A DNA stretch of 64,000 nt. It comes from Phallus indusiatus. Lineage: Eukaryota > Basidiomycota > Agaricomycetes > Phallales > Phallaceae. Within the stretch, counting starts at the first letter, position 1, and the number at the start of each line of letters is the position of its first letter. The DNA is taken from the NCBI GenBank assembly GCA_027605045.1, contig JAQFWX010000042.1, positions 1-64,000 on the forward strand, read 5' to 3'. Made by a program: the position numbers and the translations under genes. Of the stretch, positions 7,298 through 62,977 are shown in pieces. The notes under the pieces are model-generated. The model was not told the DNA's origin and ran no database searches. It saw nothing but the letters and a program-made list of their open reading frames with translations.

Positions 7298-10200
7298 TCA
7301 AGCCTCGTTTTCATTGAATTTCTGAGGCTGTCCACGCTCTTCAGAATCGTGGTTCAAGTTTGTTGTTTCAGTGCGTTGATTTTCGACACTCGGCGGGTGT
7401 TGAGAACGTTGAGAGGCCAGACCGAAACATTGCCTAAACTTGCGTGCGACTTTTTCGAGCTCCTGACGAAGGTCTGTATTTTCTTCGGAATGTGCCTCTG
7501 AAACCATAATACCGTGAAGTTGATGTAACTTTGACCGACAAGGCTCTGAATTGGAGCAACATTCTGCTGGTGTGTGAACCAAAAGGAGTCCCCCTAGTTC
7601 CACCAGCACGGACGAGTTGTAGAGAACGGTAGACGGAGCAAGTCCATCTAGGCCCACAAGCGCCACACAGAGATACAATAGACCACCACACAAGTCGTCT
7701 TGTGCGATATGATCAATATACCGGACATCTTTGAAGTTTTGAAGAAATGTCAAAAAACGGGACACAGCCTCGGCGGGATCATTCGAGGAGTTGATGCATC
7801 GATACAGACCGTCGTGATTCTGAGGCATGAGAAGCAGTGTGAATATGGGAAACCTGCTCAGGCTGTGCCCAGAGATAAGTAATCTGACGTCGTGCGAACA
7901 CCATTGATATATGGAAGAGGGGTCGCTGAACTCGAGTTGGTAAAAGCGCTCAACCCAGTTATCCTTCTTCTTGCCGGAACTCCAAATCAGAGACAGGGAG
8001 TCAAATACTTTCGATCTGACGGTATCCGTCATAGATTCACTCCAAAATGCATCCACGCAGCAAATATATTCGAAGAAGAAGAGGTAGTCCTCGTGTGAGA
8101 AATGATAAGTTGGATATGAAAGCCATTGATGTAAGCTGTTAAACATATCAGACAACAACTTTTGCTTCTGTTCTTCGTCGGCAATGAGCGATCGCGGGGA
8201 AGTAAGGTTCCGATAGATGAAGGCAACGAGGAGATAATGTTTCCTAGGGTAATTGTCTTCTGAGGAGGAATAGTGAGGGCTGCCAGTAGAAAAGTAACGG
8301 AACAGGTAGTCAAATTTCCATTTTGCCGGCTCGCCGGGATTTTTGAGAACGGTCTGGAAATGTGCGGTCTCTGTGCCATTTGTGGTGCTCCGGGTGTTCC
8401 AGTCAAATATGTTACGTATTCCGGAAGTGATGATATGTCTAGCCACCTCATCATCTTCCGACGCCCTTGCGAGGAAACAGTGCCACATGGTCAGCGGAAG
8501 CTTGAAGTCGTCTTTGATAGCGTCCTTAAGAATTTCGACATAATTGGCACTGATTACATTTTCGGTAATTCGGGAATAATTTTTATATTCCACTTCATCC
8601 ATTTGTTTTCTAAACTCCGTATCAGCCATAGACGGAAGTAGAGACCAGTAGTTGCACTCCCGGGACAAGAGATCAATACACAATCCATGACGAATATCCA
8701 CCACGCTTGTTTCACCGACTTCCAAAATCCTCCAAAAACTGTTCAAGGTGTCGGATTCGAATTTCTGTGCAATATTTGGATGCATAAATGAACACCGTGC
8801 GATAATCCGGTGAACATTTGTAGCAGAGAAGGTTTCATTGAGCCAAGAAAGTGCGTCCGAGTCGAGAGGAGCGGCATTTGCAACAGCCTGTTTTATCTTC
8901 TCCTCCCTCCAGTTGGTGAATTTCGGAATGGTAGAAGCGAAGCGCTTGAAGGGTTCCAGCGCACGACGATGAAAATTGAAATGACGATCCATAAGCCTTT
9001 TTATCACAAAACCATCTCCAAGCAGAGTGAGAGTCAAGAGGACAGTTACCAACGCAGACCTGCCATGAGAGATATATATAACAATACATATGAAATTTAC
9101 AACCCAAATAGAACAGAGGAAAAGGAGAAGACATTTCTGGAAAAAGTTCCATTTCGAGATTATCCTGGCCATCTTCGAACAAACCTCCGGGTCTAATTGT
9201 GAACTCGGGTATACTCTGTCGATTATACGTAGAATTTTTGATACCGGGTTAGTGACCCTCGGCAAAAAAAAGAACAGTACACCGATATAGATCGTAAGCG
9301 ACGTTACATATGGGCATCCCGGATATCGAACAGGTAGTATCACAGACACAAAATATAAAACGTATGTGACTCCGGTAATAGCGACGATCGCCCGAGCGAC
9401 TTGAACATCCAATGGAAACAGAAGTATGATTATGCCTGTCAGGAACATACCGACAGCAATATGCAAAAGAATCGGCAGGAGATCAACGATGGCACCGACT
9501 TTCCACGACTCAAACCCTTGAAACCGAAATTGTCTTGCTCTCGCCTTTTCGCGCGGTGTTCCGGAGATAGAAGACAGGTAATAATAAAGCCATTGTTTGG
9601 AAAGGACAGCGAACAGCGCAGTAGACAACGTAAGTGCCAAACTAGTGAACCACAGGCCATTTACGAGTTGCGCATTTGCCGATGGTATGAACGGAGATGT
9701 AGGGGTTAGTATCGAACTAGGAACATTATTAATCGGTGTTCCACTGAATTGGGCTCGAAGTAATTTGTTTGTTTCGAACAACAAGGATGCAGAAACTTGG
9801 GTATTATCCTGCTGAAGGCTTTGCGAAGCCTGGGAAACGAATGTTGCGACAACACTGGAGAAAAGACCAGCCTACAAAACAGCAAACTTTAGCGATCATA
9901 GCCACATAAGACGGTCATTCAACGTACAAATACGAGAAGAACATCTGCTGTCTCTTTCCAACCTTCCGCTCTTTCACGATCATAAGCCTCAGCTTCGTCA
10001 AGGTAGGTCGACCAAACTCGAGCACTGGGACCAAGCTCTTCTCCGGGACGATCTGCAGGATACTTCTGTTCATAATCAAATCGATTATTTACTTGATGTT
10101 CCACAATTAGCGAGTACGATATAATCACGTCAGTTTTTACTCACCGTTATTGGATTCGGTTCTGGTTAGTCCAAAAAGCTTTTTGCGCAAGGTCCTGATT

Positions 10201-33381: not shown

Positions 33382-36300
33382 ATGTCTGAAACCAGTAGTT
33401 TATCCGAGAGCCGAGCGCAGTTCAAGTCTACCATCGACGCTGGCACTGATAGAAACTTCCCAAGTGTCATCTTGCAGCAGTCCTGTGGCACCGGCAGCCA
33501 ACGCGACGAATCTCCCGGCGCTGAGGAAGACTTTCTTTATCTTAACGCAACGCCTCGAGACGTACATTATCCCACATCTTTCAACGAAAAAAAGGTGACA
33601 GGGTTTGAAACCCTGAAAGATAGTGGCAAAATCTCGAATGATGCATCTCTGGAGATTTTACAAGTCTTTTTCAACGAGTTTCTTGGTGATACTATCCTCT
33701 TTGTCATTTAATGTGAATAACCCCGGCTGATATATGCATTATCAAGGAATTACACCCAAACCATCATCATCTGATTATTCTGAAGAGCTCAAAGCTTTGC
33801 GCAGAAGATTTTTTGGGTTGACTAAAGCTCCTCCTCCCGAAACCAAAACCAGTCGTGAGCCTATAGCTTGTTTATTTTGTCACCCCAGGCTAATGCGTAT
33901 CAGCGAACAACCGATTTGATTACGAGCACAAATATCCTAGGGATAGGCCTGGAGAAGAAACCGAAGGCAACGCTCGTATCTGGTTGACCTATCTTGACGA
34001 AGCTGAAACGTTCGATCGTGAGAAGGTAGACGGATGGAAAGAGACAGTAGATGTTCTGCTGGTCTTTGTAAGTAAAAAATTTATCGGGAACATAACTTAA
34101 GAAAGCTAAGTCTTTGGTGTTTGGCAGGCCGCTCTCTTCTCTGGTGTCATAACGACATTCATCTCCCAAACAAGTTTGGTCACGCTTCAGAAGGACAATA
34201 CCGCAGTCACCGCATCCTTATTGTCCGAAATCACTCAAGTACTCCGAGCACAATTTAACGGAATTTCAATAAATTCTGTTCCCAACTCGACATTGACACC
34301 TACTTCACCTTTTACACCGTCAACGAATGCGTTTTGGGTGAATGGTTTATGGTTTACGAGTCTGGCTATCACCTTGTCCGCCGCCCTCTTCGCTGTCCTT
34401 GCAAAACAATGGCTTCATTACTATCTTTCTGCTATCCCCGGAACGGCGAAAGAAAAGACAAGGGCCAGGCAATTGCGATTCCAAGGTTTTGAATTGTGGA
34501 AAGTCGGTGCCATTATCGGTCTTCTCCCAATCCTCTTGCATCTTGCGGTAGGGATGTTCCTCGCTGGTATTGGCGTACTACTATTTCCACTGGATATCAA
34601 AGTCGCCTGGACGATGGTCATTCTTACCGGGATCACCTACTTCTTGTACTTTATTTCTGTGATACTGCCTATTGTGTATCCAGAATGCCCGTATACGAGC
34701 TCGCTGACAATCTACACCGGTGTTCTATTTTTTTTCTTGCGAGGGATCGCTCGTTGGATTAGCTTGGTCTCAAAAAAGGTTTTCCGTTACTCCGAATGGA
34801 AGTATCAATTGCGAAATACACTGTCGACTTTTAAATCGGTACTAAATCGGTTCTTGCAATCTATTCGGGCTGTTCTTTGGCAGTACTTCTACAGTATTGT
34901 CCCACATGCGTCCCTCTACGCTTTAGCTGACCACATGCACGCTTTTACCGCTGGTTTCAAACGTCTCGGCTCTATTGAAAAATTCCCCAAATTTACCAAT
35001 TGGAGAGAAGAAAATATAAAGAAAGCTGTCAAGGATGCGACTTCGCTGGATTTCGAAGCACTCCATTGGCTTCATGCAACTTCTTTTAATACGAGCGTTC
35101 GTCGGATTATTGCGCGATGTATATCTGCGCATACTGATATCAGTCAGCAATTCGAACCCGACGTCATTAGGAACCTCGGACAGACCCTGAAAGTCAACGA
35201 GGCGAATGTTACGGATCTGCGTTATGCTTTATGCTTAGATCTCCTAGCCGACGAATGCGAACACTGGTACCTCCTTCGGTCGATGCCTAATGCCACGGAG
35301 CCAACCCAGCCGGAAGAAATAGAGCACACGAATTATTCCCGTATCCTGCAAGATGTCATCTCGAATGAATATCACCAAATTCTTGAAGATGCCTCCAGGG
35401 ATGATACGCTCAAGTTTCCATTGGCCATGTGGCATTGTATTTTCAAAAATGCGGCGGTTGAAAATACAGTGGTCGTGCGTATACTTACCTCCGAGCCAAA
35501 CGGTCTCTTCGAATGGTCGTTCAACCCCGCGCACAAGCTCACATATAACACGGATGTTGTATCCTTCAAGGACCCAAAACTGGGACGATGGAAATTTGCC
35601 TACCTTCTTCGTTATTTCAGTCCTGGTCATAGCAACCCTGACTATTCGTCAGAACGCAAGTCCTTTGAAACATATTATCACCTCCTCGTTTCAATCTACC
35701 GTAATTTCACCGCCGATAGCCCGCGACCGCTCATCGCTGACAAAACACAGAGGCAAAAGGCATTGCACCATTTGTTTGACACCTTTTGCGATTGGCTTTA
35801 TTTCTCTGATCAACCTATCTCACCCGAACAGAGTCTTACCTTCTTCGCTGATATTTTCTGCGTGGATGCGTTTTGGAGTGAGGCTCTGACGGATTGGACC
35901 AGACATAGGATAGCAGGGTGCCTGGGTTCGGTTTGGAGCTTGATGGATGCGGACGAGGCCAAACACTTTCTTTTCATGGAATGTCGCGACCTCACGCCGT
36001 TGTATCAATGGTGTTCCCGAAGCCTCCACCCAAATCTTACAAGCTCAACAACTTTCATATTCGCACTGTTGCTTATGCCGCAGAACCGTACATATTTATA
36101 CACAACCCTCTCGAACGACTCTGACGCCGTATCCCACTTCTCAAGATGTTTTCAAAACCTGAGAAGTTGTTACAGTTTCCGTAGCGCGAGAAAATACCTG
36201 TTTCCAAATCTAGTCGATCTTTTCAGGTCTGTGGACCCGAAGGCACCTTTGTTTAACGTTTTCTATAGCTGGTCCGTGATCTTGCAAGTCTGGAAGTTCC

Positions 36301-36757
36301 TCGCGTTCAAGGAGCCGTATCTTCGAAGTTTCCTCCTCGTTCTCAAATCGAAGCTTGACCAACAGAAGCTGTTCGAGCTTCATGCCACCATGAATGAACA
36401 AGCACAATCTGACGTCGTTCGCGAGGCTCTCGAATTGTCTGCATACGAGTTTGGTGAAATTATAGGCGCAGTGTCTCAGCTACGACCTGAGCCCACCGAT
36501 TCTGAACAGCTTGCACCTGAACATGTGGCAGACAACTCGAATTTGGATCACGATATTGAAGAGCGCGCTGAAGTTTCCGATGTGAAAAAGGTATTTTGAC
36601 AATTTTTGATTCATATTAGTACTGCTAAAGCATATATTCACAGAGCAAAGGTTTTGGCTCCGTGATTGAGCGGATGAAAAAAGCGTTCGAATTCGTGTGG
36701 CCAAAAGCGGCTTTCACGTTAGTGAACTCCGACGTGGATATGACTGATTTGAACTGA
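33382..36757 (+). CDS. DUF6535-type membrane protein, copy 2
   Basis: Exon 1 starts MSETSSLSESRAQF and ends inside NEFLG at a GTGATA donor; exon 2 carries ITPKPSSSDYSEELKALRRRF; exon 3 carries NRFDYEHKYPRDRPGEE ... DGWKETVDVLLVF; the long exon begins with ALFSGVITTFISQ and runs to a GTATTT donor near 36590; the last exon encodes KGFGSVIERMKKAFEFVWPK and ends DVDMTDLN at TGA 36755-36757. The four-helix module is complete (NGLWFTSLAITLSAALFAV, LLPILLHLAVGMFLAGIGV, TGITYFLYFISVILPI). Everything is in frame across the GT-AG introns. It is the upstream member of a tandem pair with copy 3, about 580 bp apart, same strand. The function of the family is unknown; the helices suggest an integral membrane protein. 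Confidence 0.85.
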
Positions 36758-37341: not shown

Positions 37342-40300
37342 ATGTCTAAAGCAGCTGCCTCCCCCGAGAAAAGAGTGCGGTTTAAATTTTCGGACGATGG
37401 TGTCATTGATATGGGTGCTGAAGTCGATTCTGAAAACACCCGACCGCCATGCACATGTACGGCAACGTCTTTGAATAAGGAGGATGAAAGGGCCCAGATT
37501 CAACGCGGGGACCAGGAAGATGAAAACAAAAGATCGAATGATGCCTATGGAGAGCTTTTACAGGTCTTTTTTCGTGATATTCTTGGTGAGAGGTTTGTTC
37601 CCTTGTATGCCAACGTCCATGGCTTATATATGTTCTGAAGGTATTACACCAAAACCGACATCTGATTACACTGAGGAAATCAAGACATTGCGCAAAAGAT
37701 TTTTCGGGATGGCCAAAGATTTATCATCTGAAGCTGGGTGTGAGTGCTGTGACTTAATTGAATTGGGACCTAGGACGTAATATATAAATAGCGAATAGTC
37801 GATGCGATTATGAACAGAAGTATCCCAGGGATCGACCTGGAAAGGAGGGAGCCGACAACGCTCGAGTTTGGTTCACCTACCTTGATGAAGCTGAAACTTT
37901 TGACCGAGAGAGAATAGAAGGGTGGAAAGAGACAGCAGATGTTCTCCTAGTTTTTGTAAGTGTCATTGTTCATATGTAGATGACGATAGAAACTTAGTAC
38001 TCAAATTGTTCTGAATCGTCACTGGCAGGCTGGTCTTTTCTCTGGAGTTATAACAACATTCGTCTCCCAGGCTTCTCAAAGTCTTCAGCGAGATAACACT
38101 CAAGTTTCTGCATCTCTGTTATTCGAGATAGCCCAAGTACTACGCGCTCAATCTAACGGAACACCAATAAATACGATCCCCAGTTCGACGTTGACGCCTA
38201 CTTCACCGTTCACACCGTCGACGAATGCTTTTTTGGTGAACGGTCTGTGGTTTACTAGTCTAGCTATTACCTTGTCTACCGCGCTATTTGCCGTCCTCGC
38301 TAAACAGTGGCTCTATTATTATATATCTTCTATCACTGGAACGGCGAACGAAAAAGTGAGGGCCAGGCAGCTGCGATTCAAAGGGTTTGAGTTGTGGAAA
38401 GTCGGTGCCATTGTTGACCTCCTTCCCATCCTGCTACATCTTGCTGTCGGCATCTTCCTTACGGGTATTATCTTACTATTGTTTCCATTGGATATTTGCG
38501 TGGCGCGGATCATCATCGTCATAACCTGCATCACTTATTTCCTATATTTTGTCTCTGTGATACTACCTATTCGATATCCGGAGTGCCCGTATACGACTTC
38601 GTTGACAATTTACGTCGGTATTTTGGTCTTTTTCTTTAGAGCCATCCTCCATTGGCTTAAGAAACCTTTCGTAAACGTATTTCAACTCACTTGGACAAGG
38701 ATCAATTCCGAAGCTCAGCATACTATTCGATGTCTCCTTCGCTATGTCCAGGGTGTCTTCCGATATGCATTCAATTTTGTTTTCGACTTAATTGATTCTG
38801 TGGGTAGAGGTTTTCGGGAGTTCCGAGACACAATATTTACAGAAAAATCCCCCCGGATCACAAATTGGAGAGAAGAGAATATAAAGAAAACCATCAAAGA
38901 TGCGACTTTCCTCGACTTTGAAGCACTCGATTGGCTCTATGCGACTTCCCCAAATAGAAGTATTCATCGAATTATTGCACGATATGTAGCTGTGAATCCG
39001 AACATTGGTCGACATTTCAAAATCGACATTGTCAACAATCTTTGGCGAGCACTCAAAGTCAATAGCAGTAACATTATAGATTTGCGCTACGGTTTGTGTC
39101 TGGATTCCCTAACTCATGACACCTATCACTGGCGCATACTCCGGTCTATTCCTCATGTGGAAGACAGTCAACTGGAAGAAGAAGAATATCAAAAATACTC
39201 GCTTATCGCGGATAGCGTAATATATAGGAATTATGGATTAATCTTGGAAAAAGCTATTGAAGGCGATTTCAAGCTTCCACCGGTCATGTGGCGGTATTTT
39301 CTTGAAAAAGCAGCAGTCAACGACACAGTCGATGAAACAATCGCTGCGCATATCCTCACCTCCGAGAAAACCGGTCTATTCGAATGGGACTTCACGAGCA
39401 ACACAAACGTCGTATCTTTGAACAGTAAAGTACTGGGATGGTGGAAATTTGTCTACATCAACGGCTATTTCTGTGGCGATAGTATCTGCTCAAGTTCAAG
39501 TTTGAACTATCCCTCTGGATCGGAAGATGGCCCATCGTTCGAATCATGTTATCTCCTGCTTATATCTGTCTATCGCAACCTCACCTCCGATCAACCGCTC
39601 ATTACCGACAAAATAAAGAGGCAGGAGGCCTTGTTGAATCTGCTTAGTGACTTCAGAGACTGGCTTCGTTCTTCTCGTCGGTCCGTCTCATCTGAGCAGA
39701 ACCTTGGCTTGTTCATTGATGTTTGCTGCACGAATGCATTTTGGGGCGAATCCATGACGGATTTGGCCAGACGCGTCGCAGTATCGTGTTTGTGTAGGAT
39801 CTGGATGGACGTCGACGTCGCGGACCGCTTTCCTTTCACGGAATGCCACGACCTTTCTCCCGTATACCAATGGTGCTCGCGAGATTTTGGCGACTCGGAT
39901 CTCTCAGAATTTACACACGCTATATACACGTTGCTGTTTATGCCACAGAACCGCAAAGGTCTATGCGAAATCCTCTCAAATGATCCAAAGGCCGTACCCC
40001 ACCTTTTGCGATGTTTTCGGAATTTAACGAATCGATTTCATTCTCATAGTACAAAAAAAATACATATATCGGAACTTAATGATCCTCTTGAAGTCTGTGG
40101 ATTCGAAGGCGCCTTTATTCCCCATTCTCTATGACGCATCCGTGCTTGTGCAAGTATGGAAGTTCCTCAGGTTTCACGAGGTGAACGCAAAAAATTTTCT
40201 TCTCCTCGTGAGATCAAAGCTGGACGAGGACATACTGATGGAAGTATATTTCGCCATGAAAAAACAAGCACAGCCCGGGAACATTTGCCAACCTCCCGAA

Positions 40301-50177: not shown

Positions 50178-53100
50178 ATGTCTGACGCTGATAGTCTAAC
50201 CGAGTCCAGCAGGGCACAGTTCCAAACTCTAAACGACGGTGGGAAAAGCTCGAGCTTGAACATCACCTTGCAGGAATCTTGTAGAAACCATGGCGGCTCT
50301 GCTCCCAGTGGCGCTGAAGACAAGAGTACAACGCCACTCGTCGTACATCCTGAAGTGCCTTATATCGCAGGAGAAGCAGAAACCATTACGAAAGACAACC
50401 ATAGTGAAAGTGCGAACGATGCCTCCTTGAAGCTTTTACAGGTCATTTTCCGCGAGTTTTTTGGTGATTCTTCTTTGTTTGTGCTTGTGGCATGGACACG
50501 CACCTTATATCTTTCCAAGGTATCACACCCAAACCATCATCCGACTACACTGAAGAAATACAGGCATTTCGCAAGAGATTTTTCGGGTTGGCGAAAGGCT
50601 CTTCGTCCGAAAGTAGCTGTAAGTGTGGTTCCATGTACTCAAACACCTTGGTTAATTTCTTTTAGCAAATAATCGATATGATTACGAGCAAAAATACCCA
50701 AGAGATCCACCGGGGAAAGAAGCGGCCGGAGACGCTCGTGTCTGGCTAACCTACCTTGATGAAGCTGAAATTTTTGATCGCGAGAAGGTAGAAGGATGGA
50801 AAGAGACGGCGGACGTTCTCCTTGTTTTTGTGAGGAAAAACGTGTTTTTTGTTTTGCATAAGATGTTTTGCTGATATTGACATACTAGGCTGGTCTCTTT
50901 TCTGGCGTTATAACGACATTTGTTTCGCAGGCCTCTCAAAACCTTCAGCAAGATAATACTCAAGTGTCTGCATCTTTATTATTCGAAATAGCCCAGATAT
51001 TACGAGCACAATCTGATGGAACACCAATCAATAGCATTCCCAAATCAACATTGACGCCCGTTTCGCCATTCTCGCCGTCGACGAACGCGTTCTTGGTGAA
51101 CGGTCTGTGGTTTACTAGTTTAGCAATCACATTGTCCGCCGCCCTATTTGCCGTCCTCGCCAAACAATGGCTTTATTATTATCTGTCTTCTATCACGGGA
51201 ACCGCTCATGAAAAAGCAAGGGCTAGACAGTTACGGTTTAATGGTTTTGAATTGTGGAAAGTCGGGGCCATTATCGATCTCCTCCCTATCCTCTTACATC
51301 TTGCTGTCGGTTTCTTCCTTACGGGCATCATCATACTACTGTTTCCACTGGATGGTCATGTCGCTTGGATCATCTTCGTGATTACGGGTATCACGTATCT
51401 TCTATATTTCGTTTCCGTGATATTGCCGATTCGATATCCGGAATGTCCTTATACGACTTCCTTGACGATTTACCTCGGTGTTCTTTTCTTTTCATTACGA
51501 ACAATTTTTCGCCGTGCCGGCATGACTTTGAGAAATGTTACTCGGATGGTAGGAAGACCCAGAACCTTACACTATATTCACTGTCTCCTTCGTCACATTT
51601 CCAATGCTGTTCGCCACGCATTCTCCTCCATATCCGAGCTAGCTGGCGTGGCTTGTCGTGGCTTGCAAAAGTTACGAGACACAATTTTCGCCCAGGAATT
51701 ACCCAAATCTACGAATTGGAGAGAAGAGAGTATAAAGAGAGCAACAGAAAATATGGCTCTCCTTGATTTCGAGGCACTCGATCGACTTTACACCATTTCA
51801 CCCAACAGGAGTGTTCATCGAATTATCGCACGGTGTATAGCTGTGCACCCAAGTATCGGTCAGGAATTTGGGTTCCATTTTTGTGAAAATATCTTGAGGA
51901 CTTTGGATGTCAGCGAAACGAATATGTCGGATTTGCGCTATGGACTGTGCTTGGATATTCAGACTATTGGGGACAAGCACTGGCGTTTATTCCGATCCAT
52001 TACCAATGTGGACGAAAGCCAACTAGAAGATACGGAGTATCAAAGTTATTCCCGAATTGCCAACAATGTACTGGGCGGAAATTATCGTCAAATCATGACG
52101 GATGTCCTCAACCATGATCTCAAACTCCCACTGGTTATGTGGCGGCATCTATTTAAGAAGGTCCCACGGAATGCTACAGTGGCAGCGCATATAGTTATGC
52201 ATGGGCAAAATGACTTATTTGATTGGAAGTCTGCATGCACCACGCGTGTTATATTCTTCCATAATACAGAATTGGGACGATGGAAATTTGATTACCTTTT
52301 CCGTTACTTTTTCGATGATACCGAACCTGATTATTCCCCAGAAAAGGCTTTTGAAACACGTTATCTCCTGCTCATCACCATCTACCATAACCTTACATCC
52401 AATCAACCTCTCGTTCTTGATAAGGTACATAGGGAAAATACCTTGCTTCGCTTGTTTCGCAACTTCAGGATCAAGACTGATTCTCCTAACCAAACCATTT
52501 TTCCTGAGAACTACTTTACCTTCTTCAGAGGCGTTTTCTGCGTGGATGCGTTCTGGAGTGAGTCCATGACACACGGTGCCAGAATTATGGCGACAGTGCG
52601 TCTGGACAATATTTGGGACTACGCAGGCACCGACATGGTTAACTGCTTCCGCTTCGCGGAGAACTACGACCTTGCGTCCGTGTATGAATGGTGTTCCGGC
52701 GATCTTGATATCGGTCTCTTGTTGTACACAACACCCATATTTACACTGTTGTTCATGCCACAAAATCGCGATAGTCTGTGTACCACCCTTTTGAACGATC
52801 CGAACGCAGTACATAATCTCGCGAATTGTTTTCGGAATCTGGGGAATTGTCATAACTCCCGTGGCGCAAGAACACACATGCTCTACCCAAATCTCATGGG
52901 TCTCTTCAAATACGTGAAGCCAGAAACGCCTTTTTTCAACATTCTCTATAGCTCGTCTGTACTTGTACAAGCTTGGAAGCTCCTGGTGTTTCGGGAAATG
53001 GATTCAAAAAATTTTCTTCTTGTCATTAAATCGAAGGTCGACCAAGAGAGGTTAACGAATCTCCATGCCGCTATGACTGACCAGATACGATCTTCCGAAG

Positions 53101-53398
53101 ACTCATACATGCGTCTAGCCCTCGAAAAGTCCGCACGCGAGTTCGAAAGGATTACGAATTTGTCCCATTTACAAGCCAAGTCCTCCACCGCAAATTCTAT
53201 GCCTGAGCATGCAACGGACAAGAATCTTGATATTGAAGAGCGTGCCCAAGAGGTTATTGCGAACGAGGTAATTTTCCTAATGTTCAATTTGAATATCATA
53301 ATAATTTAATATATCCACAGTGTGAAAATTCTCACAGATCCATAATCCACCGGATAAAAAAGAGTGTTTGGCCAAAGACATCCGTAATTAACAAATAG
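50178..53398 (+). CDS. DUF6535-type membrane protein, copy 4
   Basis: Exon 1 starts MSDADSLTESSRAQF and ends at EFFG with a GTGATT donor; further exons carry ITPKPSSDYTEEIQAFRKRF, NNRYDYEQKYPRDPPGKEA with GWKETADVLLVF, and the long exon with AGLFSGVITTFVSQASQNL and the complete four-helix module (NGLWFTSLAITLSAALFAV, LLPILLHLAVGFFLTGIII, TGITYLLYFVSVILPI). The main frame reaches an AACGAG-GTAATT donor near 53267, and the tail exon reads HRSIIHRIKKSVWPKTSV before TAG 53396-53398. It is intact, on the same strand as copies 2 and 3, and closest to copy 3 in the N-terminal exons. Its leader exon resembles copy 2 (S-L-ES-RAQF). Confidence 0.85.
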
Positions 53399-55463: not shown

Positions 55464-55537
55464 CACCTACCACTGACCAGTGTTACATAGATGCAAAATA
55501 GAATAATGTCCCACGACTTTCCTTGAGCGTCCCTGCG

Positions 55538-55678
55538 GTAGGGACGGTGCCGAGACGGCACCACCGTCCTGCAGAGCGCAGAGAGCGCTAGAGGCACTCA
55601 CGGTTCTTCCAGACCACCATCATCACACTAGATAGTTCACATTCACTCGCATTAGACATCCATCCATCTTTTTGCTTT
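55538..55678 (+). repeat. Split direct repeat A1 (left end)
   Basis: 141 bp, identical to A2 at 60062-60202. Its first 30 bases can fold: GGACGG pairs with CCGTCC and TGCCG with CGGCA around an AGA loop. Confidence 0.95.
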
Positions 55679-55710
55679 ATCATCCCTTTCTTTAGTTTTT
55701 CTTCCTGAAT

Positions 55711-57140
55711 ATGATCTCCAACACGAAAGAGTCCGATCTAGTCAATATCTTGTCTGAAGGTGTGCACGGCGCCAGTGGAAACAACCCGTCGATCTCATCG
55801 GCGGCCTGCTCTACAGGCCCGCCGCACGCCTCATCAGCACCCAGTGTGACGAACGCTGAATCGGGATCGGGAGCAGGGCACCAAGACAACCTGGGCCGCG
55901 CCCCGTCTCACACTCCCTCAGCTACGGGCCAGCCGTCTCAAGCCAACTCTGGCTTGAGTTGTCAACAGCTGTTTACCCCGAGTGGCTTGCCTGAAGTTAT
56001 GCGTCTAGTGTCTGAATCTTCTAAAGAAGATGAAAAGAAATATGTGCTGCCCGCGGCGATCCCGGGTTTCCACATAAGTGCCACCCAGATCCGTAAGTCT
56101 TATTTCTCATTAAAGCCCCAGTTGGGGTTCACCTTTGAGCAAATCGCTACCCGGTGTAGCGTCAGGCTAGTTGGCCGTGAAATGGACAGTGGTCATCATT
56201 TTAATTTCATGCCCGCGCTAACCCCAGTTGGGGAGTGGCATCATGGACAGGGCCATGGAGAGCCGTCCTTCTTTTCTCTTCTGAATCCTTCCTTTCCAAA
56301 TTCCCTCGTAATTTGCATGAAGGGTGCTAATCTGCCCTTTCCCTTCCCCCTTCAGTTATCTCCCATAAGATCCAAGACCTGTTCCGCAGAGGGCGTTTTG
56401 TGGGATACTCTAAGCTTGTACCCAGCAACAGCTTCGCACCAGAGAATGATGACCAGGACTTCGTGATTAATGCTCAGGGCGGCTTGACTGAGAAAGCGCC
56501 CGATCTCTCGAAAGAATACGACATCAACCCCCTGGACTGGATCAATGCAGCCAGAACAGCCGTGGACTGGGTGCGAACTTATCACGGAGAAGAGAGAGCA
56601 GCGGCTCTGCAGAAACATCATGCCTACGTCCTAGCCACCGGACAAGAGCACACATGGAGAATCGCATTGGAATACGATGTCAGGCAGCGCCAGTTATCGG
56701 CACTATATCACCAGCATGACCTTGGCACAGCAGACGAGAGTGCACTGACTCGAATTACCACCAAGAAAGCGGCAGCCCTAACTGTGTCGGATCCCTCCCC
56801 ACGCACTCCTTCCAAACGCAAAGCATCGGAAGCAGCAACCCCAGAGAGATCAAAACGCTCTCGCTCAGAGAGGGTCCGTTGTTTTCGCTGTGGCAGACCC
56901 GACCACTTGCCTGCACGGTGTCAAGCTGAGAAGACCATCGCCGGAAAAACCCCCTTTCGTCTCACACCCTCGCCGAAGAATGAACATGCCCTCTCTTCCC
57001 CAGACGGCAAGCGCCTGTGCACCAACTGGGCCAGATTCGGTGACTGTCGACTCAGTACAAACTGCTCCTTTCTTCATGCCTGCAGCCTCTGCGGTGACAA
57101 CACCCACGGAAATAGTAGCTGTCCAGCCATCAGATCCTAG
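55711..57140 (+). CDS. Retrotransposon Gag-like protein, spliced, three zinc motifs
   Basis: Two exons, 55711-56092 and 56356-57140, joined by a 263-nt intron with a consensus GTAAGT donor and CTTCAG acceptor, give 388 residues. The N-terminal third is Ser/Gly/Ala-rich and disordered. After the join comes a helical region (HKIQDLFRRGRFVGYSKLV, DINPLDWINAARTAVDWV). A basic segment (SKRKASEAATPERSKRSR-like) precedes three zinc motifs: CFRCGRPDHLPARC (CCHC, C-x2-C-x4-H-x4-C), a C-x8-C-x5-C-x3-H motif at about residues 345-364 (CCCH type) and CSLCGDNTHGNSSC (CCHC). Gag packages the element RNA; the basic tail and knuckles fit that role. Its stop overlaps the region where the next frame of RT begins. 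Without the splice, the upstream frame would end in unrelated sequence at 56466. Confidence 0.8.
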
Positions 57141-57283
57141 GCGGGTGGTGACCCCCTTGGATCATACTAAGGTAGAGGCAGCCTTACGTAAATACAATAT
57201 TTATGACGCCTTCACACACATTGTGGAGGGTCTGGTACATGGCTTCGATGTGGGTGTACGGGATCATCCGACACGCACCTTAA

Positions 57284-58771
57284 TCTTTCGAAAATCACAA
57301 ATCATCTTCACTCGACCCCGATTTCATCACTACATACATTCAGAAAGAGCAAGCGGCCGGCCGCTACTCCATAGCCTATTCTACAGAGGAGCTGGAATCC
57401 ATAATCGGTCCATTTCGGACTTCCCCCTTGGGTCTAGTGCCCAAACCAGGATCCGACTCGTTTCGCATGATCCAGGACTTATCCTTCCCACGGAAAGATT
57501 CTCTCCACCTTTCTGTCAATGCTGGGGTGAATTCCGACGACTTCCCAACAGCGTGGGGCACCTTCACCATAGCAGCCGATCTCATTCTGAGCTTACCACC
57601 AGGTGCTCGTGCTGCAACTTTCGACATCTCAGCAGCGTACCGGATCACACCCGTGAGACCAGACCAACAAGCATCCTTGTGCATCCAATGGGAAGGAAAA
57701 GTATATGTAGACAGAGCAGTGATGTTTGGCCTAGCCTCAAGCGCCGGAGTTTTCGGGTCCATAGCAGACATGCTGGTAGCACTCTATCAAGCCGGGGGTT
57801 GGCCACATGTCATAAAGTGGGTGGACGATTTCTTCGTGATACAGTTACCGGGAGAATCATGGTCAGAAGAGGAGTTCATGGCCTTCACAGGGAAGTTAGG
57901 GGTCCCATGGAGCCCGACAAAGATCCGCCCGCTATCCACACGCCAGAAGTACATAGGTTTCATTTGGGACCTGGATTCAAAGTCAGTAGCGCTCCCAGCG
58001 GACAAGTTAGCGGCTGTCATGGACATGCTGCACTCATGGATAGATCCAAGCCCACCGGTGTCAGCAAAAGGAGCAGCGTCATTCCACGGCAAACTGGTTC
58101 ACATATCCTCCATTTTCTCCTTAATTCGCCCATTCCTGAGGGGACTGGCCCTTTTCGCAGCTTCCTTTGCAGCAGCCTACATCAAGAAGTCACCATCAGC
58201 AGCTGTGAAAGCGGACCTGTCGTGGGTGAGATTCATCATCCAAGCATCTCCCAAGTCGCTCCCCTTGCAACAATCAAACCCAATCGATGTACAATGGTGG
58301 GGGGATGCGAGCTCCTCATTCGGTGTCGGCGTGGTCGTTTCCGGAGTCTGGGATGTGTGGCAGTGGACCGACAGCACAATCATCGGTCCGGGTCGCCAAT
58401 ACGACATTGGCTGGGCCGAAGCTGTAGCAGTAGAGCTGGGTCTGCGCCTGGTGCTACACCTGAACCTACCGACAGTCCAACCAGGTGTCACTGTACTTGT
58501 GCGCTCCGACAACAAAGGGGTAGTGGGTGCTGTCAATCGTGGCAGGTCACGAAATGCTCACACGAATCGGATACTCAAGGAGATTTACAAAATCCTGGCA
58601 GCATCACAAATCAAACTATCCCCCACCTACGTGCAGTCTGGCATCAACCGTGCAGACAGTCTTTCGAGAGGCCAGGTAGCCGACTTCCTATCTGCTGGAG
58701 GCGCCTTGCATCGCAGTTCAGTTCCTTTGCCGGACCACCTCCTTGGGCTCTTAACCCCGTGGTCTGGGTGA
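57284..58771 (+). CDS. Reverse transcriptase-RNase H of the Ngaro-type element
   Basis: The RT frame carries GPFRTSPLGLVPKPGSDSF and MIQDLSFPRKDSLHLSV (fingers), ATFDISAAYRITPVRP (first catalytic Asp), MFGLASSAGVFG, the polymerase box IKWVDDFFVI (VDD variant of YxDD) and QKYIGFIWDL. The RNase H domain follows with VQWWGDASSSFGVGVVV (Asp), AEAVAVELGLRL (Glu), VRSDNKGVVGAV (Asp) and INRADSLSRGQ (Asp). The conserved N-terminal RT segment (HTKVEAALRKYNIYDAF, VEGLVHGFDVGVRDHPTR) lies just upstream but in the preceding frame, so a +1 shift is needed between 57284 and 57293, around TTTCGAAAA. The first ATG in this frame is 57428. The frame stops with TGA at 58769-58771, overlapping the recombinase start. 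Confidence 0.9.
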   Translation, partial: SFENHKSSSLDPDFITTYIQKEQAAGRYSIAYSTEELESIIGPFRTSPLGLVPKPGSDSFRMIQDLSFPRKDSLHLSVNAGVNSDDFPTAWGTFTIAADLILSLPPGARAATFDISAAYRITPVRPDQQASLCIQWEGKVYVDRAVMFGLASSAGVFGSIADMLVALYQAGGWPHVIKWVDDFFVIQLPGESWSEEEFMAFTGKLGVPWSPTKIRPLSTRQKYIGFIWDLDSKSVALPADKLAAVMDMLHSWIDPSPPVSAKGAASFHGKLVHISSIFSLIRPFLRGLALFAASFAAAYIKKSPSAAVKADLSWVRFIIQASPKSLPLQQSNPIDVQWWGDASSSFGVGVVVSGVWDVWQWTDSTIIGPGRQYDIGWAEAVAVELGLRLVLHLNLPTVQPGVTVLVRSDNKGVVGAVNRGRSRNAHTNRILKEIYKILAASQIKLSPTYVQSGINRADSLSRGQVADFLSAGGALHRSSVPLPDHLLGLLTPWSG

Positions 58772-59910
58772 TGCAACCACAGGCACCCGTTCGTCGCAGG
58801 CTGCCCCTGTCACAGCTCCGTCCGAAGTGCAGAGCTGATGAAAGACTTTTCTGCTGGCGCGGAGTCAACACACCACCAGCATCGACGATTGACGATCTTC
58901 TCATCCATACCCTCGCTGCTATAGCTTCTAGGGCCTCATTGCGGAGCCCAGATAGCTATGGGGCTGGGCTACGCAAGTTTCACATTTTCTGCGACCTTTT
59001 CAGCATTGCCGAAGCTCAGAGATTACCAGCGTCTTTCGAGGTCCTCCATTCCTTTGCCCTTTGGGCCACGGCAGTACCTGAGTTCATACCGGCCAGTGAG
59101 ATGCAACATCACCCGCTGGAGCCGGTTGCGGTAGATACAGCTCGCAAATACCTGTCTGCCGTGCGTGCATGGCACCTAGCGCAAGGCTGGCCTTCACCTC
59201 TATCTGACGAAACTTGGTGCCGCATCAATTGGTCCCTGCGTGGCCTGGCCAACCTGCAAGGGGAAGGGCGTCGCAAGCCTCCTCGTCCCCCTGTCACCCT
59301 GTCAATGCTCCGTCAGCTGAAGCAGGCGTTGTGTCTCGACTCACCTTTCGATGCCTGCGTTTGGGCAGCAGCCTCCTGTGCCTTCTGGGGGCTGATGCGT
59401 TTCGGAGAGGTGACGGTCCCATCGAGGAAGGCCTTTTCGGGCTCAAGACATTTGAAACGGGCCGATGTCTTCCTACTGCAGGATGACAAGGGGCGCCCCG
59501 TCATGAAGCTGTGGCTGCCGTCTGCGAAGACAGCAAAGCCAGGGGAGTCACAGGCTGTGGTGGTAGTGGGCCAACGGGAGACGTGCCCGTTAGAAGCAAT
59601 CAAGCACCTGTTCCAGTTGGTGCCAGCGGAACCGACGGACCCATTATTCAGCTGGAGGGATGCACGGAGGGCGATAAGACTACTCACCAAAGACGCAGCA
59701 CTGCGGCGAATCAAGCAGGCCTTGTCAGCAGAGGGCAAAGGCCTTGTCTTTGGGCACTCGTTCAGGATCGGGGGAGCATCATTCTTTCTGGCTCAAGGGG
59801 TCAACCCAGAGATAGTCCGCCTAGCTGGAAGGTGGAAATCCCTATCGTACCAGACATACGTGAGGGCGTTTGAACAGATAGCGCCCCAGCACCTGAGCAA
59901 CATGGAGTAG
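58771..59910 (+). CDS. Tyrosine recombinase of the Ngaro-type element
   Basis: A 379-residue protein starting at the ATG of a TGATG overlap with the RT stop codon. The N-terminal core-binding helices (SPDSYGAGLRKFHIFCDLF, VAVDTARKYLSAVRAWHLA) are followed by the catalytic domain: Arg in FWGLMRFGEVTVPSR, the HxxR box GHSFRIGGASFFLAQG, the His/Trp position in LAGRWKSLSYQ and the nucleophile Tyr in SYQTYVRAFE. All R-H-R-Y residues are present, so the enzyme should be active. It would recombine the circular element copy, probably at the A/B repeat junction, into the genome. The same frame is open far upstream (to 56890) across the RT gene, but that stretch lacks recombinase homology. Confidence 0.92.
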   Translation: MQPQAPVRRRLPLSQLRPKCRADERLFCWRGVNTPPASTIDDLLIHTLAAIASRASLRSPDSYGAGLRKFHIFCDLFSIAEAQRLPASFEVLHSFALWATAVPEFIPASEMQHHPLEPVAVDTARKYLSAVRAWHLAQGWPSPLSDETWCRINWSLRGLANLQGEGRRKPPRPPVTLSMLRQLKQALCLDSPFDACVWAAASCAFWGLMRFGEVTVPSRKAFSGSRHLKRADVFLLQDDKGRPVMKLWLPSAKTAKPGESQAVVVVGQRETCPLEAIKHLFQLVPAEPTDPLFSWRDARRAIRLLTKDAALRRIKQALSAEGKGLVFGHSFRIGGASFFLAQGVNPEIVRLAGRWKSLSYQTYVRAFEQIAPQHLSNME

Positions 59911-59940
59911 AGATAGGCAGCCGGATCATGTGGTTGGGGG

Positions 59941-59961
59941 GCAACGGTGGTCCACCGTTGC
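59941..59961. repeat. Perfect hairpin just before B1
   Basis: GCAACGGTGG and CCACCGTTGC are separated by one T. It lies 30 nt after the recombinase stop and 9 nt before B1; likely a structured RNA 3' end or a recombination landmark. Confidence 0.7.
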
Positions 59962-59970
59962 GGGTGGGCT

Positions 59971-60061
59971 GGCGGTCGTCTGTCCTGCGTACCGAGCTCC
60001 GCTCGTTCCCCAACCTCATACGGCTGCCAGTTCCAGAGAGAGAGAGCAAGACGAAGCAGGA
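59971..60061 (+). repeat. Split direct repeat B1
   Basis: 91 bp, identical to B2 at 60346-60436. It abuts A2 directly at 60061/60062, creating the B-A junction expected at the recombination site. Confidence 0.93.
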
Positions 60062-60202
60062 GTAGGGACGGTGCCGAGACGGCACCACCGTCCTGCAGAG
60101 CGCAGAGAGCGCTAGAGGCACTCACGGTTCTTCCAGACCACCATCATCACACTAGATAGTTCACATTCACTCGCATTAGACATCCATCCATCTTTTTGCT
60201 TT
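60062..60202 (+). repeat. Split direct repeat A2
   Basis: 141 bp, identical to A1 including the terminal foldback. Confidence 0.95.
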
Positions 60203-60345
60203 CCCACCCTTCCCATCCCAGTGCACATAGTTTATTCAGTTTCATATCTCCATCAGTAGTCTACAGCTGGCTAATATACATTCTCAAGCGTTATTGCGTC
60301 CCTCTGGTAGGCAACCGAATCGTAGGACAAGGAGCCCGCCCACCC

Positions 60346-60436
60346 GGCGGTCGTCTGTCCTGCGTACCGAGCTCCGCTCGTTCCCCAACCTCATACGGCT
60401 GCCAGTTCCAGAGAGAGAGAGCAAGACGAAGCAGGA
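60346..60436 (+). repeat. Split direct repeat B2 (right end)
   Basis: 91 bp, identical to B1, ending GAAGCAGGA at the right boundary of the element; 143 bp separate it from A2. Confidence 0.93.
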
Positions 60437-61100
60437 ATGTCCGTACCCGTCCTGTGACAGCCGTAAGGGCTCGTAAGGGTCCCGCACTTGAGCTGTGTCC
60501 GTCCCTGAGTTTAGCCATTACGGTCTCAATTTCCCGAACCGTTTCTGTCACTTCACAGAGTGCATTTTAGAAACAGTACTATCGTACATAAATGTATAAT
60601 TTTTTTGTGAAACTAAAATGAGCAGCCGGGTGCTGCAGCCCCCGCTTGGCCCCCGCTAGTTTTGCGATGAGCGCTTATGTGAGATCTAAGCGAGTTTGGG
60701 CAAACTTGCTCAAAAACGTGAAGTCCCTGTTAATAGACGCCGATGAACTGAGACGCGTCATCGATGTTCTAAGAGCACCATCAGGCACCATCCCATCATC
60801 TTTGAAGATTATTAACTCTGTAATCAATTTTATTTCAAACATATTTAAAATTAAAAACTTTTTAATCTTTTGACCTTGAAAATTGCATTTGTAGAAGAAG
60901 GTGAATTGAAAGTTGGGACTGTGAAAGACAATTCCAGCACAGATCAGACTCCGCGGGACACTTGTTATTATGGCATGCTACATAGATAGCACAGCGCTTA
61001 AAGTGAAGGGGTGACTAAGAATTAAATTATGTAATAAAAAATCTTCTCTTGTCTGACCCTTTTCTTCTACAAGGCTACATGAAACGTCTTCACTGTTTAC
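60437..61100. other. Intergenic, no gene seen
   Basis: Right flank of the retrotransposon and promoter region of the AIM9-like gene. A short open frame (60646-60873) has no recognisable features. Confidence 0.45.
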
Positions 61101-62977
61101 ATGTGCTGTGCGAGGCTTGTTTTTCCTTTACTTCCAGTGCGCTATCCGCGTACTTTCTACTCGCTGATTTTACCGTCTAACTCGACTCGGACTTGCCGGC
61201 GGCTGCTACGTCGTGCATTTGCAAGCGTGTCAAATTATCCTATAAACTTTCTTGATGATTACTTCAATTATTCATCAGGACGCTGGCTGTAAAGTCTTAT
61301 ACATCTTTTTTCCCTGTTGTCTAATATGTCTAATTGATGATATCCAGCGTCAACAATGATCTTCGCCTCAAAGAACGCAGACGTGAGTTCGACATTAATG
61401 AGCTTTGTTGACTTGCGGCGCAGTCTGTTGGTCGAAGTCATCAAGACATCGCCACCTTCACGAAACTTGCAGAGGGTGGATGTAATCGGACTTTTCTTAT
61501 TACCATGCATGACGGCTTTGAAATGGTAGCCCGCATCCCATACCCCGTTACACCCCCCAAGTTTTATGCTATCGCCAGTGAAGTGGCCACAATGCGCTTC
61601 CTTCGTTCCTCTGGGTTTCCTGTTCCCGAAGTTTACAATTACTCTCCCTTCTCGGACAATTCCGCGAAGACAGAATATATATTCATGGAGTTTATAAGAG
61701 GTACGAAGCTCAGCGACATGCGGCTGACGAAAGAGGATATCCACTCGGTCTTAAGTCAGCTTACTGAACTCGAGTCTCGCATGATGTCGATTTCTTTCCC
61801 GGCTGGTGGGAGCCTCTACTATGCCGCTGATTTGGAGAAGGTGACAAAGAGGACGGGTATCCCGCTCAATGACGAGCGGTTCTGTGTCGGTCCAGATGTT
61901 AGGGTGATTATGTGGTACGGGAGGAGATCTCAGCTCGACGTAAATAGGGGACCGTGTACGTTCCTTTTCTTTCCTTTTTTGAGAACTTATTTCTCGAATC
62001 GATACATTTTAGACGAAAACATGGAGGAAGCGCTCATGGCACCAGCTCTCAAAGAACTGGAGTATCTGAAACAGTTTGGTCGACCGCTGCTACCATTTCA
62101 ACGTGAAAGAAGAGAGTCTTACGATTACAAGGAGCAGTCCCCGTTGGACCACGTCCAGAATCTTAAACGCTACCTTCTCATCGCGTCCTCGCTCGTCCCC
62201 AGGAACACAGCTCTTCATCAGTTCTGTATCCGCCATCCCTATCTCCAGATGAGCAACATTATCGTGTCGGAGTCGTCAAACTCCGAATCTCACAGGGTGA
62301 AAATTGTGGGACTGCTTGACTGGCAACACGCTTCGATCCTACCCGCGTTTCTCCTCGCCGGTATACCGGATCGCTTGCAGAACTACGATGACCCAGTCTC
62401 CGAGGCTCTCATCCCTCCCTCGTTGCCGGAAAATTTAAAAGAGCTGGATCGATCTGAACTGAGTGTTGTTATGGAACTCCATGTCCGCCGTCTCGTCCAC
62501 TTTTACTACGTCAAGAGCACGGAGGAGTACAATAAGCTTCATCATGATGCGTTGTCCGACCCTGGGTCTATGTTCATGAGCGACCTGTTCGACCGAGCCG
62601 GTTGGCCCTGGGAAGGTGAAACTCACGAGCTGAAGGCCTTTTTAATAGCGGCAGCAGAAATTTGGTGGAAAAAGAGTCGTGTAGGGGAGAAAGGGGATGT
62701 GCGGTGTCCAATCGCGTTTGATCCCGAGGACATACGCCAGACAAAAGAGCTGAGCGCAAGGTTGAAAGTAGCTGACGAGAATTTTGAGAGGTGCCGCAGC
62801 ATTATTGGATTTGAGACCGTGGAGACTTGGGTTTTCAACGAAAACTACGAAAGGGCCTCTGAGCTTGCTAGGCTGATGAAGGCGAAGGTGTTGACCGCGA
62901 TCCCGGAGAAGGAAGTCCGGGCTAAGGTTGAGGCGAATTGGTTCTTGGACGATATGGACGAAACGCCTTACATGTAA
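61101..62977 (+). CDS. AIM9-like mitochondrial phosphotransferase-family protein, probably damaged
   Basis: Exon 1 (61101-61288) gives an Arg-rich, acid-free leader (YPRTFYSLILPSNSTRTCRR) and the family motif DDYFNYSSGRWL. After a GTAAAG...CCAG intron come VNNDLRLKERRREFDINEL and an in-frame TGA at 61409-61411, then in the same frame AAQSVG, FTKLAEGGCNRTFLITM, MVARIPYPVT, SEVATMRFLRSSGFPVPEVY, FMEFIRGTKLSD and, after an intron near 61959-62011, a long C-terminal part with KIVGLLDWQHA. This is the aminoglycoside-phosphotransferase/AIM9 fold, located in mitochondria in yeast. The catalytic HPDL is HPYL here (RHPYLQMSN), so the catalytic base is gone. The frame from ATG 61505 onward is intact, so a shortened protein could be made. 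It may be a pseudogene or a pseudokinase with a sequence error at the TGA. Confidence 0.7.

What the first reader, a model, noticed from the sequence alone, without database searches (positions are those of the whole stretch)
55538..60436. Complete, apparently young Ngaro/PAT-type YR retrotransposon with perfect split direct repeats
The order A1(141) - gag - RT/RH - YR - B1(91)A2(141) - B2(91) is exactly the split-direct-repeat architecture. By eye both repeat pairs are identical and the RT, RNase H and recombinase catalytic residues are all present. Such intact copies are informative about active DIRS-order elements in fungi. A foldback at the start of A and a perfect hairpin 9 nt before B1 may be recognition or RNA-end structures.
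Basis: partly seen in the sequence, partly recalled or inferred. Interest (0 to 1): 0.8.

Follow-up and report, generated by a model that had tools for sequence, protein, structure and literature searches.

The report
Fungal jumping gene with overlapping genes
This is a complete copy of a known kind of fungal retrotransposon (Ngaro) that inserts itself with a Cre-like recombinase; its less usual feature is that the reverse transcriptase gene appears to be written inside a second, stop-free reading frame that leads to the recombinase, with a likely ribosome slip site between the two.

Summary
Confirmed to the base: A1 55538-55678 = A2 60062-60202 (141 nt), B1 59971-60061 = B2 60346-60436 (91 nt), both 100%, B1 abutting A2. 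Predicted folds match retroviral/Ty3 RT-RNase H and Cre. No methyltransferase: Ngaro, not PAT. It is the only RT copy found in the 67 Mb genome; 11 other loci carry solo A-spacer-B units. At 7 of 9 loci tested an empty site exists, and each insertion is exact, without duplication or loss.

"All present" needs qualifying. Gag needs a predicted 263-nt intron removed. RT's leader lies in frame 1; the switch to frame 2 falls on UUU_CGA, a known +1 frameshift motif, and a relative (P0096) switches at the same codon. Frame 1 stays open through all 494 RT codons into the recombinase, although synonymous shuffles give 13.6 +/- 3.0 stops (minimum 3). I read this as selected overlap: unshifted ribosomes reach the recombinase, shifted ones make RT. 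ORF overlap is known in DIRS1-like and some Ngaro elements. No relative's DNA could be read. New variant of a known kind.

The parts
55538..55678 (+). A1 repeat (141 nt); begins at the foot of a foldback
   Evidence: identical to A2; fold
55711..56092 (+). gag exon 1 (frame 1), predicted
   Evidence: open frame; splice check
56093..56355 (+). predicted gag intron, 263 nt: GTAAGT donor, CTAATC branch-like site at 56327, pyrimidine tract, CAG
   Evidence: phase is kept and the joined frame is open for 388 codons; not tested by RNA
56356..57137 (+). gag exon 2 (frame 0): CCHC-like knuckle and CCCH zinc finger; two in-frame UUU_CGN at 56883 and 56955
   Evidence: Pfam zf-CCCH 1e-5 (above its cut-off), zf-CCHC 0.26 (below); motif count
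56782..59907 (+). frame 1, open for 1042 codons: overlap with gag, pol N-terminal leader (GFDVGV..TLIF), whole RT-RH region in the other frame, then recombinase
57286..57291 (+). UUU_CGA in frame 1: proposed +1 frameshift site from leader to RT
   Evidence: motif described in PMC5052127
57284..58768 (+). reverse transcriptase - RNase H (frame 2); in-frame TAA just upstream at 57281-57283
58771..59907 (+). tyrosine recombinase (frame 1); its ATG overlaps the RT stop as TGATG
59941..59961 (+). hairpin, 9-bp stem and 3-nt loop, 9 nt before B1
59971..60061 (+). B1 repeat (91 nt)
   Evidence: identical to B2
60062..60202 (+). A2 repeat (141 nt), abuts B1
60203..60345 (+). spacer between A2 and B2 (143 nt), kept in solo units
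60346..60436 (+). B2 repeat (91 nt), right end of element

Best explanation
A Ngaro-type tyrosine-recombinase retrotransposon of an agaricomycete-like fungus (identity about 0.95 likely). Inferred cycle: RNA is copied by RT into a circle with a B.A junction, and the Cre-like recombinase joins that junction to a target with no duplication and no loss (outcome shown at 7 loci; circle inferred). Later recombination between A1 and A2 leaves solo A-spacer-B units (inferred). Expression (inferred from sequence): spliced gag; a +1 step from gag into frame 1; at UUU_CGA ribosomes either stay in frame 1, which is kept free of stops through the whole RT gene and ends as the recombinase, or slip +1 into frame 2 and make RT-RNase H. 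Selection on the overlapping open frame about 0.8 likely; programmed slip at UUU_CGA about 0.55.
Against: No DNA of any relative could be fetched, so conservation of the open frame is untested and that of UUU_CGN rests on this element plus one relative's protein (P0096, a long branch in the tree). The frame-1 reading of RT found no homologue among 4837 candidates. TpA avoidance across codons explains part of the stop depletion: T before AT codons is also 0/39, though no stop results. Of 120 listed RT rows (one is the window's own), 31 have leader and RT in one frame, 33 begin near this place without the leader in the same frame, 56 could not be read; the first two groups do not obviously need this slip. 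Other UUU_CGN occur in frame 1 (57619, 57751, 58153). Measured slip at UUU_CGN in one system is only about 1-2% (quoted in PMC5052127). A TGATG stop-start overlap offers another way to express the recombinase. No RNA or protein data.
Confidence: 0.6

Rival explanations
1. An ordinary Ngaro copy whose RT frame was broken by a recent small change or an assembly error; the recombinase frame overlaps RT as in DIRS1-like elements and starts internally. The copy would be unable to make RT now.
For: 31 of the 64 readable relatives have leader and RT in one frame; single-copy RT; after the TAA at 57281 the RT frame has no Met before residue 62.
Against: The break falls exactly on a known +1 slip motif; the relative P0096 switches at the same codon (17 of 19). 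The stop-free frame 1 does not by itself decide between this rival and the slip.
Confidence: 0.27
2. RT is made by internal initiation or re-initiation (ATG at 57239 or 57248) with the TAA at 57281 passed by readthrough; the open frame 1 only protects unshifted ribosomes or the RNA from premature termination.
For: 33 of the 64 readable relatives begin near this place without the leader in the same frame, read here as a start in the shifted frame (protein evidence only); the window's tree neighbour P0024 is one of them (SH-aLRT 92, quick tree).
Against: The leader that resembles relatives is in frame 1, not frame 2; TAA interrupts the ATG route here.
Confidence: 0.1
3. Solo A-spacer-B units are mini-elements moved in trans by the recombinase, not leftovers of A1 x A2 recombination.
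For: Solo units and the full element have the same two ends, and solo loci show exact empty sites.
Against: Recombination leftovers give exactly the same anatomy; PMC8547959 proposes recombination for its isolated AB repeats.
Confidence: 0.2
4. PAT-type element as offered in the title.
For: Split direct repeats and a zinc-finger gag.
Against: No methyltransferase match at E up to 1 and no room for one between RNase H and recombinase.
Confidence: 0.02

Closest known systems
Ngaro retrotransposons of Agaricomycotina (PMC3783388: abstract, sections 3, 12, 13, 15, 18 and passages seen)
   Same: A-pol-B-A-B repeats, gag, RT-RH, YR, no methyltransferase; YR in the same or another frame than RT, and YR ORF may overlap others
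   Different: In what I read, no full-length stop-free overlap and no slip site is described
Ngaro-like elements of Xenopus (PMC9210276, passages seen)
   Same: Split direct repeats; [quoted passage not shown]
   Different: Extra SGNH hydrolase ORF; extent of overlap and any slip site not given in what I read
DIRS1-like retrotransposons (PMC3266345, passages seen)
   Same: Considerable pol/YR overlap, catalytic YR domain in the non-overlapping 3' end; long ORF overlap in half of 28 elements including the five from fungi; no target duplication
   Different: Inverted terminal repeats and internal complementary regions, methyltransferase; recombination with a target identical to the 3-bp junction, not seen here. 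[quoted passage not shown]
Ngaro of Cafeteria burkhardae with isolated AB repeats (PMC8547959, section 11 and passages seen)
   Same: A1-[ORFs]-B1A2B2 and solo AB repeats
   Different: Four other types; reading frames and empty sites not described in what I read
UUU_CGN +1 frameshifting of plant amalgaviruses and influenza PA-X (PMC5052127, passages seen)
   Same: UUU_CGA fits the motif: tRNA-Phe can re-pair from UUU to UUC; the paper also names a yeast amalga-like virus
   Different: There in RNA viruses; here proposed for a YR retrotransposon

Membership tests
Ngaro | Split direct repeats A1 ... B1A2 ... B2 | tested here: met
Ngaro | RT and RNase H | tested here: met
   fold and conserved columns; Pfam itself gives only RVT_3 0.065, below its cut-off
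Ngaro | Tyrosine recombinase | tested here: met
   Cre fold; R210, K253, H329, R332, W355, Y360/Y363 invariant or nearly so; no Pfam match in the window protein
Ngaro | No methyltransferase | tested here: met
   no match at E up to 1 in five stretches; 2 nt between the last RT codon and the YR ATG
Ngaro | No target-site duplication | tested here: met
   7 of 9 loci have an empty site, all 7 exact
Ngaro | RT/YR phylogenetic place with Ngaro | tested here: inconclusive
   nearest relatives are agaricomycete or unnamed proteins; no DIRS, PAT or Repbase references held
PAT | Methyltransferase domain | tested here: not met
DIRS1-like | Inverted terminal repeats with internal complementary region | tested here: not met
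   one search lists no such inverted pair
DIRS1-like | Long pol/YR overlap (shared feature, not sufficient) | tested here: met
UUU_CGN +1 frameshift elements | UUU_CGN in zero frame at the only possible switch point | tested here: met
UUU_CGN +1 frameshift elements | Frameshift product observed | not testable with these tools
   needs a reporter or ribosome profiling

The most novel reading that the evidence does not exclude
A retrotransposon that decides between copying and inserting by one ribosomal slip: the same RNA stretch encodes RT-RNase H in one frame and, in a stop-free second frame kept open by selection, a bridge to the recombinase; UUU_CGA sets the ratio of the two enzymes. In addition it integrates with next to no base shared between element ends and target (5 of 7 sites share none, 2 share one), unlike the 3-bp rule of DIRS1, which would fit a blunt or single-strand (integron-like) exchange at the A foldback.
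Probability: 0.4. Interest if true: 0.72.

Novelty: new variant of a known kind. Interest (0 to 1): 0.5.

Why it matters
How tyrosine-recombinase retrotransposons express RT and recombinase from overlapping frames, and how they insert without target duplication, is poorly known. This element offers a concrete 6-nt slip site, a measurable overlapping frame and seven insertion sites with exact empty counterparts, so both questions become directly testable with reporters and with relatives' DNA.

Tried and rejected
Relatives' DNA: viral contigs scanned twice (25 and 60 pattern matches, none confirmed) and genome contigs once (67, none). A search for proteins resembling the frame-1 reading of RT (residues 196-660) scored none of 4837 candidates at E up to 10. 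Five of 119 recombinase relatives are 500 aa or longer and run 162-271 residues upstream of the RxFxWxG motif; for two of them (P0194, P0215) this stretch resembles the window's frame 1. They are the longest of 119, so this is weak support. Rfam (gathering threshold) and tRNA scans of the window were empty. Pfam, NCBIfam and PDB sequence searches did not recognise the recombinase, the reason for folding it. TpA avoidance as the whole cause of the stop-free frame was tested and rejected. The idea that RT starts at an ATG here was weakened by the TAA at 57281. Two of nine loci (L012, L017) gave no empty site. Literature: the nine answered searches listed no paper on ribosomal frameshifting in Ngaro; none of the 20 listed of 40 papers held both words. 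The review PMC5009743 has no hit for DIRS, Ngaro or tyrosine recombinase in the held first 300,000 characters. Papers that I recall as central (Goodwin and Poulter 2001 and 2004, Poulter and Butler 2015) I did not see, so prior description is not excluded.
Full report
Observation. Repeat finding and direct comparison confirm every coordinate of the finding: A1 and A2 are 141 identical bases, B1 and B2 are 91 identical bases, B1 abuts A2, and identity stops at each boundary. The A2-B2 spacer is 143 nt. The foldback at the start of A and the hairpin before B1 are real.

What it encodes. Gag starts at 55711 in frame 1 and continues in frame 0 after a predicted intron (56093-56355: GTAAGT, CTAATC at 56327, pyrimidine tract, CAG; the phase fits and 388 codons are open); it ends with a CCHC-like knuckle and a CCCH finger. 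RT-RNase H is in frame 2 (57284-58768), the recombinase in frame 1 (58771-59907). Sequence libraries barely recognise the two enzymes, but AlphaFold models (mean pLDDT 87.8 and 80.4) match MMLV/XMRV/Ty3 RT and Cre, and residues that I recognise as catalytic sit in conserved columns of 42-sequence alignments. DUF6535 genes in the window fit such a host (the range of that family is recalled).

Copies. The internal region and RT are found once in the 67.2 Mb genome (with a diverged relative again finds only this RT); a second recombinase trace on C129 is a short degraded piece. The A2-spacer-B2 part occurs elsewhere: of 19 loci fetched, 14 align over the whole length to a solo unit (five of these served as references, and one, L025, aligns at only 72%), at 11 distinct insertion loci after merging pairs with alike flanks; 5 match only in part. 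The nearest is 99.5% identical. Isolated AB repeats have been reported for Ngaro in a flagellate and explained by recombination (PMC8547959).

Insertion. The window element lies in a repeat whose empty copy on C111 joins the two flanks directly. Of eight solo loci whose joined flanks were searched (of 19 fetched; one of each duplicate pair, clear ends), six had a copy elsewhere that runs through the junction, four of them over nearly all 220 nt, L014 and L019 with only 22 and 33 nt right of the junction. At all seven sites the best fit is zero duplication and zero loss (0-3 mismatches in 30 nt). For L014, L015, L016, L019 and L020 I moved the first element base by 1-3 nt from the first estimate to agree with the empty site. 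At these seven sites the element begins with G and ends with CAGGA. Five share no base with the element ends, two share one. That speaks against a DDE-integrase or target-primed insertion with duplication, and differs from the 3-bp identity described for DIRS1-like elements (PMC3266345). Which exchange gives this outcome is not shown; a circle with a B.A junction is inferred.

Frames. Frame 2 is closed by TAA at 57281-57283, and conserved RT residues begin at 57287, so a ribosome coming from the leader must change frame within about nine bases. The leader GFDVGV...TRTLIF is in frame 1 and resembles relatives in which leader and RT are in one frame. The switch codon pair is TTT CGA, i.e. UUU_CGA, the +1 motif described for amalgaviruses and influenza PA-X, where tRNA-Phe slips from UUU to UUC; the efficiency quoted there is low, about 1-2% (PMC5052127). 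There are 13 TTTCGN in 55711-59907, four of them in frame 1, so a chance hit in the two or three possible codons is of the order of 1% (my estimate). A relative, P0096, has a gene model that runs straight on at the same codon; its +1 reading can encode the RT start at 17 of 19 fixed positions, against a mean of 4.9 and maximum of 12 for 20,000 shuffled peptides and 1 of 19 for the -1 reading, and a Phe at that place forces TTT_CGN. Of the 120 listed RT rows (one is the window's own), 31 have leader and RT in one frame, 33 begin near this place without the leader in the same frame (label off/short; I read them as starting at an ATG in the shifted frame, from protein alone), 56 could not be read. 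On a quick tree 32 of the 33 group together (support 94) while the 33rd, P0024, pairs with the window (SH-aLRT 92).

The overlapping frame. Frame 1 runs open from 56782 to 59907. In the RT part this is 494 codons without a stop. Shuffling synonymous codons gives 13.7 +/- 3.0 stops in 20,000 trials (minimum 3) and 13.6 +/- 3.0 in 10,000. Gag and recombinase regions show no such depletion. Part of the effect is a general lack of T before A across codons (T before AT codons, where no stop results, is also 0/39); keeping junction dinucleotides roughly fixed still gives 8.1 +/- 2.3 (minimum 1 in 455 samples of one chain), and T before GA codons, which is free of that bias, is 0/42 against 31/126 (p 5.7e-5) with 8/29 in gag exon 2 and 8/32 in YR. 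Selection to keep this frame open is the simplest reading. [quoted passage not shown] but overlap of all ORFs is reported for Xenopus Ngaro (PMC9210276) and frequent overlap for YR elements generally (PMC6681497). So overlap as such is not new; its full length here, its measured freedom from stops and the slip site are what I did not find described.

Mechanism. Shown by sequence: anatomy, exact insertions, solo units, open overlapping frame, position of UUU_CGA. Inferred: RNA to circle to recombinase integration; gag to frame 1 by +1 (two in-frame UUU_CGN at 56883 and 56955 are candidates); unshifted ribosomes make a leader-bridge-recombinase product, shifted ones RT-RNase H. The main rival is a freshly broken RT frame in an otherwise ordinary element; the open frame alone does not decide between the two.

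Verdict. The finding is right in what it saw. As a Ngaro it is ordinary; the overlapping frame with a slip site at the only possible place makes it a new variant worth testing.

Noticed in passing
window 7301-9871 (-), 34110-36596, 37990-40131, 50889-53306 (+): Four related genes of about 714-857 codons with DUF6535 (E 1.7e-42 to 7.5e-44), one inverted: a local gene family.
   Followed up: partly
window 61412-62974 (+): Open frame with an APH phosphotransferase-family match (2.2e-8) right of the element.
   Followed up: no
window 55490-55537 and 60437-60963: The Ngaro sits inside an older dispersed repeat (copies on C111, C112, C1 and others), which is not seen in a similar segment on C195.
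   Followed up: partly
window 59962-59969 and 60338-60345: GGGTGGGC just before B1 and its reverse complement GCCCACCC just before B2; the latter is kept in solo families L014, L016 and L019 but not in L017. In RNA the two could pair across B1-A2-spacer.
   Followed up: no
window 56883 and 56955: Two UUU_CGN in gag frame 0 inside its overlap with frame 1: candidate gag to frame 1 slip sites.
   Followed up: no
L012/L013, L017/L018, L021/L022, L023/L025, L027/L028: Solo or partial loci in pairs with 97.7-99.9% alike flanks over about 2.9-5.8 kb: segmental duplications or unmerged haplotypes in the assembly.
   Followed up: no
L050 (C129), about 1682-1846 on the minus strand: Short degraded recombinase remnant, 44% over 55 residues.
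   Followed up: partly
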